This document shows, in pieces, positions 60,238 through 61,027 of a stretch of 64,000 bases of DNA (position 1 is its first letter; each line of letters opens with the position of its first letter). This stretch comes from a virus: the IMG/VR virus record IMGVR_UViG_3300042934_000619, positions 1 to 64,000 of that record; one strand, written 5' to 3'. The notes below the pieces were generated by a model. It had not been told where the DNA came from, did not search any database, and saw only the letters and a program-made list of their open reading frames with translations. The position numbers and the translations under genes were made by a program.

Positions 60238-60312
60238 GCGTCCGGTGCGAAGGCAACGACGGCTACTTCTTTTGGTGAAATCACGCCGTCACGCCGTACT
60301 GATCTCGGACGC
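60238..60312 (+). ncRNA. Y-RNA-like 2, minimal form
   Basis: Outer stem GCGTCCG (60238-60244) with CGGACGC (60306-60312), motif GGTGCGAAG opposite TGATCTCGG, inner stem ACGGC (60259-60263) with GCCGT (60293-60297), and a short apical hairpin. No tRNA-like domain. Confidence 0.75.
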
Positions 60313-60321
60313 GTACAACTT

Positions 60322-60461
60322 GTGCCTGGTGCGCAGATGAGGAGTTCTTCGCCTTGGGAGCGGGAGGTCGCGGGTTCAAATCCCGTTCGGTCGGCAGAGC
60401 TGACCGGTAGCTCAGTCTGGAAGAGCGCCTACGATCGCCTCGTCGACTTGATCTCAGGCAC
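60322..60461 (+). ncRNA. yrlA-like: Y-RNA-like 3 with complete permuted tRNA-Pro (UGG) domain
   Basis: Outer stem GTGCCTG (60322-60328) with CAGGCAC (60455-60461); GGTGCGCAG opposite TGATCTCAG; second stem GATGAGG with CCTCGTC. Permuted tRNA: anticodon arm TTCGC-CTTGGGA-GCGGG (anticodon TGG), variable AGGTC, T arm GCGGG-TTCAAAT-CCCGT, full 7-bp acceptor TCGGTCG (60387-60393) with TGACCGG (60401-60407) closed by a 7-nt loop, T8 A9, D arm GCTC...GAGC. Confidence 0.8.
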
Positions 60462-60471
60462 GAAAATCAGA

Positions 60472-60592
60472 TGTCCGGTGCGCAGGACGACGCGTTCATC
60501 GATGGTTCGACCCCACCCGGGAGTCCCTCGCAAGAGGCTCGCTCCTGTTGCCCACTTGGGGGCAGCTCGCGTTTCCGATCTGATCTCGGACA
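60472..60592 (+). ncRNA. yrlA-like: Y-RNA-like 4, YrlA type (tRNA mimicry without anticodon arm)
   Basis: Outer stem TGTCCG (60472-60477) with CGGACA (60587-60592); GGTGCGCAG opposite TGATCTCGG; inner stem ACGCG with CGCGT. Inside: T-arm-like GATGG-TTCGACC-CCACC, acceptor-like CGGGAG/CTCCTG enclosing a CCTC-GCAA-GAGG hairpin, and D-arm-like GCCC...GGGC. The Ro-binding stem takes the place of the anticodon arm, as in known YrlA RNAs. Confidence 0.7.
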
Positions 60593-60598
60593 GTACAA

Positions 60599-60750
60599 GG
60601 GTGCGTAGCTCAGAAGGTAGAGCGGCCCGAAAACGGACGGGCGGCGTGTCGAGACGGTTGCGGATGCACCGAATGGCTCTCGCAGGGTCTGTAGGGAAGC
60701 GCGTTTTCCAAGCTCGGCTCACGGCGCGGGTTCGAGTCCCGTCGCATCCA
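60599..60750 (+). other. Interrupted tRNA-like element
   Basis: Canonical 5' half (acceptor GGGTGCG, TA, D arm GCTC-AGAAGGTA-GAGC, 60599-60623) and canonical 3' half (T arm GCGGG-TTCGAGT-CCCGT, acceptor CGCATCC, A73, 60726-60750), but 102 nt between them instead of about 26. A GCCCG/CGGGC hairpin with an 8-nt loop follows the D arm. Either an intron-like insertion or two fused tRNA remnants. Confidence 0.45.
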
Positions 60751-60764
60751 CGGCACATAATCGG

Positions 60765-60857
60765 CTCCGACGTCCCTACTCGACTTCAGTCGTCGGAGAA
60801 ACGAGGACTCTGGCATTGACGATGGTTATGTCCTCGTTGCCCCGGCGCAAGCCGGGG
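60765..60857 (+). other. Three consecutive perfect hairpins
   Basis: Stems CTCCGACG/CGTCGGAG (60765-60798), AACGAGGAC/GTCCTCGTT (60800-60838) and CCCCGGC-GCAA-GCCGGGG (60840-60857). Structured RNA between tRNA-like elements, no gene. Confidence 0.5.
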
Positions 60858-60863
60858 TTACCC

Positions 60864-60938
60864 GGGAGGCCCTGGCCAGGCACACGGCTAAAACACCGGC
60901 GCACCCGGTGCGAGACGGTTCAAGTCCGTCAACTCCCA
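60864..60938 (+). other. Degenerate class II tRNA-like element
   Basis: Five-pair acceptor (GGGAG with CTCCC), T arm GACGG-TTCAAGT-CCGTC, and a variable-arm hairpin CGCAC-CCG-GTGCG as in Leu/Ser tRNAs. D and anticodon arms do not fold properly. Confidence 0.35.
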
Positions 60939-60940
60939 CT

Positions 60941-61027
60941 GGTTCCTGGTGCGAAGCCACCACGGGTACTTCATTTCTCTCTCAAAGAAACCCGAACCCC
61001 GTATCGGCACCCCTGATCTCAGGAACC
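60941..61027 (+). ncRNA. Y-RNA-like 5, minimal form, in the Ro60 leader
   Basis: Outer stem GGTTCCTG (60941-60948) with CAGGAACC (61020-61027), motif GGTGCGAAG opposite TGATCTCAG, inner stem ACGGG (60962-60966) with CCCGT (60998-61002). No tRNA-like domain. It ends 47 bases before the Ro60 start, so it may be processed from, or regulate, the Ro60 mRNA. Confidence 0.78.

What the first reader, a model, noticed from the sequence alone, without database searches (positions are those of the whole stretch)
60238..61027. Graded tRNA mimicry within one array
Copies 2 and 5 have no tRNA domain, copy 4 has D/T/acceptor mimicry only, and copies 1 and 3 are full permuted tRNAs. One genome shows the whole range from minimal Y RNA to complete tRNA mimic, suggesting duplication with gain or loss of the module.
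Basis: seen in the sequence. Interest (0 to 1): 0.7.

Follow-up and report, generated by a model that had tools for sequence, protein, structure and literature searches.

The report
Phage Y RNA array mimicking tRNAs
Next to its Ro60 gene this actinophage carries five small Y RNAs, some bare and some holding a rearranged tRNA; this mixture proves to be the usual arrangement in such phages and in Streptomyces-type bacteria, but the two longest copies imitate all four arms of a tRNA, anticodon arm included, which goes beyond the published description of three arms.

Summary
Five Ro60-type Y RNA units lie at 60081-61027, upstream of a TROVE/Ro60 gene (61074-62756). Copies 2 and 5 are minimal. Copy 4 has T, acceptor and D arms. 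Copies 1 and 3 are complete circularly permuted tRNAs (Asn-GUU, Pro-UGG) with a closed anticodon arm. A truncated sixth unit (slot 0, 60034-60072) was missed.

Mixed short and tRNA-bearing arrays are the rule: both kinds in 63 of 71 further viral loci and 50 of 79 chromosomal loci with detected units. Size classes are bimodal, not graded. Reciprocal matches show the slots predate this phage's split from relatives with 54% identical Ro60. Copy 3 is the only clear change in module content: relatives' slot 3 lacks the anticodon arm, and the window's interior resembles slot 1, suggesting conversion. Gaps leave no room for separate promoters for copies 2-4; one HrdB-like promoter precedes the array.

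The new part is the anticodon arm, present in 41 chromosomal and 54 viral loci. Loops chosen by stem pairing alone obey anticodon-loop rules (U33 84/87, A38 84/87, UA or GG at 36-37 in 66/87). Published YrlA mimicry covers D, T and acceptor arms only. Function is inferred.

The parts
59993..60022 (+). HrdB-like promoter TTGACC-N18-TAGGTT, 11-12 nt before the first (truncated) Y unit
   Evidence: pattern TTGACN-N16-19-TANNNT; the same element stands about 12 nt before the first unit in L004, L005, L006 and L008
60034..60072 (+). slot 0: truncated Y RNA unit (5' half only, no TGATCTC partner)
   Evidence: best match L006_1628; same place relative to the promoter as slot 0 of L004/L006/L008
60081..60218 (+). 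copy 1: Y RNA with a complete permuted tRNA, Asn(GUU)-like
   Evidence: fold; R1 133.7 bits (part of the training set); Rfam YrlA 41.9 bits, below gathering
60106..60122 (+). copy 1 anticodon arm CTTCA-CTGTTAA-TGAAG
   Evidence: 5 of 5 pairs, U33, A37, A38
60128..60144 (+). copy 1 T arm CGGGG-TTCGAGT-CCCCG
60145..60164 (+). copy 1 acceptor hairpin (145-151 with 158-164; 6-nt tip, no CCA)
   Evidence: sequence; rotated-module counts
60167..60182 (+). copy 1 D arm GCTC-AGTTGGTA-GAGC
60238..60313 (+). copy 2: minimal Y RNA, no T or D arm
   Evidence: fold; orthologues L004_1837, L005_2058, L006_2030, L007_1500, L008_1393 all short
60322..60462 (+). copy 3: Y RNA with a complete permuted tRNA, Pro(UGG)-like
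   Evidence: fold; R1 133.6 bits (part of the training set)
60348..60364 (+). copy 3 anticodon arm TTCGC-CTTGGGA-GCGGG (absent from slot 3 of L004-L008)
60370..60386 (+). copy 3 T arm GCGGG-TTCAAAT-CCCGT
60387..60407 (+). copy 3 acceptor hairpin (387-393 with 401-407)
   Evidence: sequence
60410..60426 (+). copy 3 D arm GCTC-AGTCTGGAA-GAGC
60471..60594 (+). copy 4: Y RNA with T (60501-60517), acceptor (60518-60523 with 60542-60547) and a reduced D arm (60550-60563); no anticodon arm
   Evidence: R1 46.9 bits, E 1e-10, not in training; orthologue L007_1745
60599..60750 (+). non-permuted tRNA-like RNA with about 95 nt between D and T arms, 4 nt after copy 4
   Evidence: RF00005 38.9 bits; conserved in Streptomyces phages
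60942..61027 (+). copy 5: minimal Y RNA, no T or D arm
   Evidence: R1 27.7 bits with the module deleted; orthologues L006_2872, L007_2627
61074..62756 (+). Ro60/TROVE protein, the expected partner of the Y RNAs
   Evidence: PF05731 E 2.5e-21; relatives

Best explanation
This is the Y RNA side of a phage Ro60 ribonucleoprotein system. One promoter makes a precursor that is cut into Y RNA units (five intact, one truncated) and a tRNA-like RNA. Every intact Y unit would bind the phage Ro60 ring through the same basal stem and compete for it. Minimal units (copies 2 and 5) would act as plain gate or tether RNAs. Units with a permuted tRNA domain would bring tRNA-handling proteins to Ro60: copy 4 those that read only the T/D/acceptor body, copies 1 and 3 also those that read the anticodon arm. 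The array thus encodes a set of interchangeable adaptors. The complete module probably arose when a minimal Y RNA captured the junction of two neighbouring tRNA genes (3' half of the first, spacer, 5' half of the second), such as the tandem tRNA-Asn(GUU) pair of Streptomyces-type genomes. Shown: sequence anatomy, covariation, co-occurrence of both classes, slot orthology, the anticodon-loop rules. Inferred: transcription as one precursor, Ro60 binding, partner recruitment, origin by junction capture.
For: TROVE gene directly downstream and Y units upstream of ro60 in nearly all relatives, on the gene's strand. Covarying structure: 24 of 36 pairs with compensatory change, score 0.568 against 0.08-0.16 slid. 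The units of A1 were chosen for having an anticodon arm, so the independent test is: at a fixed motif-to-T-arm spacing of 25 nt, 4.69 of 5 pairs in the expected register against 2.7-3.2 in neighbouring registers (n=16); with 74 units 4.66 against 2.3-3.2. 87 arms chosen by pairing alone: U33 84, A38 84, C32 79, A34 only 2, UA or GG at 36-37 in 66. In 97 full units the acceptor pairs 7 of 7 in 77, positions 8-9 are TA or TG in 93, and NCCA follows in only 7. Both classes in 50/79 chromosomal, 63/71 viral and 38/48 first-set loci. Slots by reciprocal match. One promoter, short gaps. Junction capture: R1 scores 61-63 bits on tandem tRNA-Asn pairs 4 nt apart in Streptomyces-sized genomes and 40.3 bits on the abutting tRNA-Arg/tRNA-Leu in the window; the most frequent anticodon in full units is Asn GUU.
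Against: No expression, processing or binding data. Rfam YrlA hits stay below the gathering score (41.9 and 35.8 against 69). ARAGORN accepts rotated units almost as often when the anticodon arm is shuffled (85-90 of 97 against 97), so its calls do not by themselves support that arm. R1 was trained on units rich in Asn loops, so its preference for tRNA-Asn junctions is partly circular. Chromosomal arrays show no TTGAC/TAG promoter at the expected place (0 of 57) and nor do the 64 further viral arrays tested, so the promoter argument rests on this phage and four relatives.
Confidence: 0.7

Rival explanations
1. Recent tandem duplication in this genome, followed by gain or loss of the tRNA module.
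For: Copy 3 differs in module state from slot 3 of five relatives and its interior resembles slot 1; copy 4 has a reduced D arm compared with L007_1745.
Against: Copies 1, 2, 4 and 5 match relatives' units in the same slots better than each other; mixed arrays are widespread. Copies 1 and 3 are only 73% identical, less than copy 3 to L005_1811 (80%).
Confidence: 0.15
2. The permuted tRNAs are decoys or sensors for host anticodon nucleases and other tRNA-attacking defences, held in a Ro60 particle linked to RNA repair.
For: Closed anticodon loops with real anticodon grammar and varied triplets; an RNA ligase gene next to ro60 in phage Kela; known link of Rsr/YrlA to the RtcBA repair operon (PMC8394870).
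Against: The same units are common in bacterial chromosomes (41 of 79 loci), where a phage-only role cannot apply; no ligase was identified among the window proteins searched; not tested.
Confidence: 0.12
3. The permuted tRNAs are precursors of working tRNAs, as permuted tRNA genes are in some algae and archaea.
For: Complete cloverleaf with plausible anticodons.
Against: No CCA at the acceptor tip in 90 of 97, tips are short hairpin loops; circularisation by tRNA splicing enzymes is not known in bacteria (own knowledge).
Confidence: 0.04
4. Copies 2 and 5 are decayed tRNA-bearing units rather than a functional minimal class.
For: They share basal stem and TACTTC element with the long units.
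Against: Short units form a tight size class, keep the invariant motifs, and their outer stems covary; copy 2 is short in all five relatives.
Confidence: 0.06

Closest known systems
YrlA (Y RNA-like A; Rfam RF02553), the tRNA-mimicking bacterial Y RNAs
   Same: ro60-linked; basal stem plus a circularly permuted T-acceptor-D domain; described from bacteria and phages
   Different: Published mimicry covers D, T and acceptor arms (PMC8394870) and the Rfam consensus has no anticodon arm. Copies 1 and 3 add a closed anticodon arm plus a tRNA-like variable region, so the module joins the Y stem at position 26/27 instead of replacing the anticodon arm. Scores stay below the family cut-off.
Short bacterial Y RNA without tRNA domain (Deinococcus radiodurans type)
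   Same: Basal Ro60-binding stem with a single upper stem-loop, as in copies 2 and 5
   Different: Loop sequences differ; kept side by side with tRNA-bearing units in the same array. From my own knowledge, Chen et al. 2014 (RNA 20:1715; not readable here) already reported that at least one Y RNA per species carries a tRNA-like domain, so coexistence is known in outline.
Circularly permuted tRNA genes of red algae and archaea
   Same: 3' half precedes 5' half, joined by a linker at the acceptor end
   Different: Those are spliced into tRNAs; these sit inside a Y RNA, have short capped acceptor tips and rarely a CCA
tmRNA
   Same: Partial tRNA mimicry by a non-coding RNA
   Different: No tag reading frame was looked for or seen, no CCA end, tRNA-like part is internal and permuted

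Membership tests
Y RNA (Ro60-bound) | Gene adjacent to a Ro60/TROVE gene | tested here: met
   ro60 at 61074-62756, PF05731 E 2.5e-21; same order in relatives
Y RNA (Ro60-bound) | Conserved basal stem with internal loops and bulged nucleotide | tested here: met
   all five copies; covariation
Y RNA (Ro60-bound) | Binds Ro60 in the cell | not testable with these tools
   needs pull-down
YrlA (RF02553) | Permuted tRNA domain: T arm, acceptor hairpin, D arm | tested here: met
   copies 1, 3, 4; not met by copies 2 and 5
YrlA (RF02553) | Score above the Rfam gathering cut-off of 69 bits | tested here: not met
   41.9 (copy 1) and 35.8 bits (copy 3); homologous chromosomal units 32-52 bits or missed. 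The copies are therefore filed as Y RNAs with a YrlA-like domain, a variant, and not as RF02553 members.
YrlA (RF02553) | No anticodon arm; the connecting stem takes its place | tested here: not met
   copies 1 and 3 have a closed 5-bp/7-nt arm
YrlA (RF02553) | Modified by tRNA enzymes (dihydrouridine, pseudouridine) | not testable with these tools
   needs RNA; published for Salmonella YrlA (PMC8394870)
Permuted tRNA gene | Yields a mature aminoacylatable tRNA with CCA | tested here: inconclusive
   CCA after the acceptor in 7 of 97 rotated units only; processing not testable

The most novel reading that the evidence does not exclude
Ro60 particles of actinophages and Streptomyces carry complete tRNA mimics whose anticodon arms are under selection as real anticodon loops, mainly of the ANN type with U36-A37-A38, so that anticodon-reading proteins (t6A or m1G37 enzymes, anticodon nucleases) are the true partners; in phages this could serve as a decoy or sensor for tRNA-cleaving defence.
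Probability: 0.2. Interest if true: 0.85.

Novelty: new variant of a known kind. Interest (0 to 1): 0.5.

Why it matters
The function of the tRNA-like domain of bacterial Y RNAs is an open question. Full mimics with a readable anticodon give a direct handle: the loop rules (UA or GG at 36-37, almost no A34) point at enzymes that read the anticodon arm, and a single array offers natural variants with zero, three or four tRNA arms on the same Ro60-binding stem. Phages make the test practical, since single units can be deleted. The likely capture of a tRNA-tRNA junction is also a concrete route by which a permuted tRNA domain can arise.

Tried and rejected
ARAGORN on rotated units as proof of a full tRNA: rejected as evidence for the anticodon arm, since shuffling that arm hardly lowers the calls. 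An anticodon-like hairpin in the short units: 7-nt loops are enriched (29 of 42 against 10 shuffled) but so are 3- and 5-nt loops (25 and 19), so the register is undecided. Rfam gathering search: no Y RNA hit in the window. Consensus sigma-70 promoter scan: nothing useful; an HrdB-type pattern was informative for the phage group only. Strict motif scan of named phages: no hits, because their Ro motifs differ; printing the upstream DNA showed mixed arrays there too. Papers Chen 2014, Sim and Wolin 2018 and Wang 2018 are not held, so priority for the anticodon arm could not be checked fully. A structure prediction of Ro60 was not run, as it would not bear on the array.

Full report
WHAT IS THERE. 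The region 60034-61027 precedes a Ro60/TROVE gene (61074-62756, PF05731 E 2.5e-21) in a 102,442-base virus record with the genes of a tailed phage (DNA polymerase, Sak4-like protein, exonuclease, helicases). Folding of each unit without constraint gives the same basal stem, with GGUGCG.AG on the 5' side and UGAUCUC on the 3' side and a bulged U. In a scan of the whole window the five copies are the only perfect matches to this motif with its stem.

THE FIVE COPIES. Copy 1 (60081-60218) and copy 3 (60322-60462) read, in order: basal stem, conserved TACTTC/TTCTTC element, anticodon arm, AGGUC variable region, T arm, acceptor hairpin, UA, D arm, basal stem. This is a tRNA opened between positions 26 and 27 and closed at the acceptor end by a short tip. 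The loops are CUGUUAA (Asn GUU) and CUUGGGA (Pro UGG). Copy 4 (60471-60594) has a T arm, a 6-bp acceptor with an inner hairpin, and a D arm with a short loop, but no anticodon arm. Copies 2 (60238-60313) and 5 (60942-61027) have none of these arms. A covariance model from 21 full units, which includes copies 1 and 3 but not 4 and 5, finds copy 4 at E 1e-10 and copy 5 at E 1e-5 with the module skipped; copy 2 was not reported. A truncated slot-0 unit (60034-60072) and a tRNA-like RNA (60599-60750) belong to the same stretch and were not mentioned.

STATISTICS. On the 21-unit alignment, 36 pairs: 96.9% of cells paired against 35-48% in slid controls, covariation score 0.568 against 0.079-0.159, 24 pairs with changes on both sides. 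Because units with an anticodon arm were chosen for that alignment, the arm was tested separately: units were taken only by the spacing between TACTTC and the T arm (25 nt, n=16), and the expected register pairs 4.69 of 5, neighbouring registers 2.7-3.2; with 74 units 4.66 against 2.3-3.2. Arms then chosen for five pairs only, blind to the loop, show U33 in 84 of 87, A38 in 84, C32 in 79, A34 in 2, and at 36-37 UA 58, GG 8, CA 7. These are rules of real anticodon loops (established knowledge), with a strong tilt to ANN-reading types: Asn, Ser GCU, Met/Ile CAU, Lys, Ile, Thr.

HOW SPECIAL IS THE MIXTURE. Ro60 searches gave 42 viral loci, named phages, 80 chromosomal loci, mainly Streptomyces and relatives, and 80 further viral loci (overlapping in part). 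Both short and tRNA-bearing units were detected in 50 of 79 chromosomal, 63 of 71 viral and 38 of 48 first-set loci; closed anticodon arms in 41, 54 and 29. The scanner misses units with divergent motifs, so co-occurrence counts are lower bounds. Sizes are bimodal, about 70-79 nt and 130-149 nt, with few between. Named phages such as VanLee, GiJojo, Alone3, Frankenweenie and Quantum also have mixed arrays (read by eye). Thus 'one genome shows the whole range' is true of very many genomes. A draw of 198 genomes across the phylum gave strong full-length matches only in a few genomes of 7.9-9.9 Mb.

ORDER OF GAIN AND LOSS. Among the closest relatives (Ro60 tree: window, L004, L005+L006, L008+L009; L007 and L011 outside) reciprocal matches give slots: copy 1 = L004_1486, L005_1811, L006_1779, L007_1343, L008_1146, all with tRNA module and a five-pair or four-pair anticodon arm (L005 has C33); copy 2 = L004_1837, L005_2058, L006_2030, L007_1500, L008_1393, all short; copy 4 = L007_1745; copy 5 = L006_2872, L007_2627. 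These states therefore predate the split from L007 (Ro60 54% identical). Slot 3 in L004, L005, L006, L007 and L008 has the module without the anticodon arm; the window's copy 3 has it. Its outer stem is nearer slot 3 and its interior nearer slot 1 (20-nt windows; columns 101-140: 0.60-0.78 to slot 1, 0.32-0.53 to slot 3). The most economical reading is replacement of the interior by a slot-1-type module in the window's lineage; the windows are short, so this is suggestive. L004's slot 3 has lost the acceptor hairpin, copy 4 has a shorter D loop than L007_1745, and slot 0 is truncated in the window: decay also occurs.

TRANSCRIPTION. Gaps are 19, 8, 8 and 4 nt from copy 1 to the tRNA-like RNA, then 190 nt to copy 5 and 46 nt to ro60. 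In relatives the median gap is 15-16 nt. A TTGAC-N-TAG promoter stands about 12 nt before the first unit in the window, L004, L005, L006 and L008, and no other in their arrays by this pattern. The gaps before copies 2-4 are too short for a promoter of this size; copy 5 has room but none was found. In the chromosomal and the second set of viral arrays the pattern was not found, so their promoters are unknown.

ORIGIN OF THE MODULE. The model R1 also lights up, over the module part only, where two tRNA genes abut: the tRNA-Arg/tRNA-Leu pair at 62961-63110 of the window (40.3 bits) and tandem tRNA-Asn(GUU) pairs 4 nt apart in Streptomyces-sized genomes (61-63 bits). Such a junction has exactly the order of the permuted module, with the spacer as the acceptor tip (tips are mostly 4-7 nt), and Asn GUU is the commonest anticodon in full units. 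Capture of a junction by a minimal Y RNA is a simple route; the training set favours Asn, so this is a hypothesis.

MECHANISM. By analogy with known Ro60 particles, Y RNAs bind Ro60 by the basal stem, gate its ring and tether partners; YrlA is modified by DusA and TruB and linked to PNPase and to RNA repair operons (PMC8394870); its crystal structure is a circularly permuted tRNA (PDB 6CU1; PMC11472068). I infer that the short and long classes serve different tethers, which explains why they are kept together, and that the anticodon arm widens the set of partners to proteins that read it. CCA is almost always absent and the acceptor is capped, so translation is unlikely. A decoy role against anticodon nucleases is possible in phages but does not explain the chromosomal copies.

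NOVELTY. Y RNAs with tRNA-like members next to ro60, in phages too, are known (Chen et al. 2014, from my own knowledge; paper not held). The published domain is D, T and acceptor arms (PMC8394870). The closed anticodon arm with anticodon-loop grammar, found here in many loci, is to my knowledge an addition: a new variant of a known kind. The papers that could contradict this were not readable here.

Noticed in passing
window 60599-60750: Non-permuted tRNA-like RNA with covarying acceptor (GGGTGCG, GCTTTCG, GTCCCTG types), an anticodon-like arm with a near-invariant 8-nt loop AAAACGGA, and an almost invariant stretch of about 60 nt (GGTTGC.GA.GCACCGAATGGCT...GGGTCTGTAGGGAAGCGCGTTNTCC) before the T arm. 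Found unannotated in about a dozen Streptomyces phages, some within tRNA arrays, and in further IMG/VR contigs; Rfam gives only a split tRNA hit. May be an undescribed tRNA-like ncRNA.
   Followed up: partly
window 49422-49522: tRNA-like sequence (RF00005 39.4 bits, 101 nt) with an enlarged D loop holding a hairpin and no clear anticodon arm; not called by ARAGORN.
   Followed up: no
window 60858-60941: Possible degenerate tRNA (T arm GACGG-TTCAAGT-CCGTC, long variable hairpin, weak acceptor) between the tRNA-like RNA and copy 5.
   Followed up: no
L051 3704-3775, L048 5769-5843, L050 4774-4847, L052 3778-3868: Annotated tRNAs directly upstream of ro60 in phages VanLee, GiJojo, Alone3 and Frankenweenie appear to be parts of Y RNAs, read by tRNA finders as ordinary tRNAs.
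   Followed up: partly
L043 5819-5960 and L032 7396-7538: Y RNA units that carry a tRNA-like domain in normal, not permuted, order inside the basal stem; these lie downstream of ro60.
   Followed up: no
L046 3229-3981: RNA ligase gene directly before ro60 in Streptomyces phage Kela, recalling the Rsr-YrlA-Rtc repair operons of other bacteria.
   Followed up: no
L249-L251; window 62961-63110: Tandem tRNA-Asn pairs 4 nt apart in Streptomyces-sized genomes, and an abutting tRNA-Arg/tRNA-Leu pair in the window, look like the permuted module across their junction.
   Followed up: partly
L004 1925-2052: Slot-3 Y RNA of the nearest relative has lost the acceptor hairpin between T and D arms.
   Followed up: no
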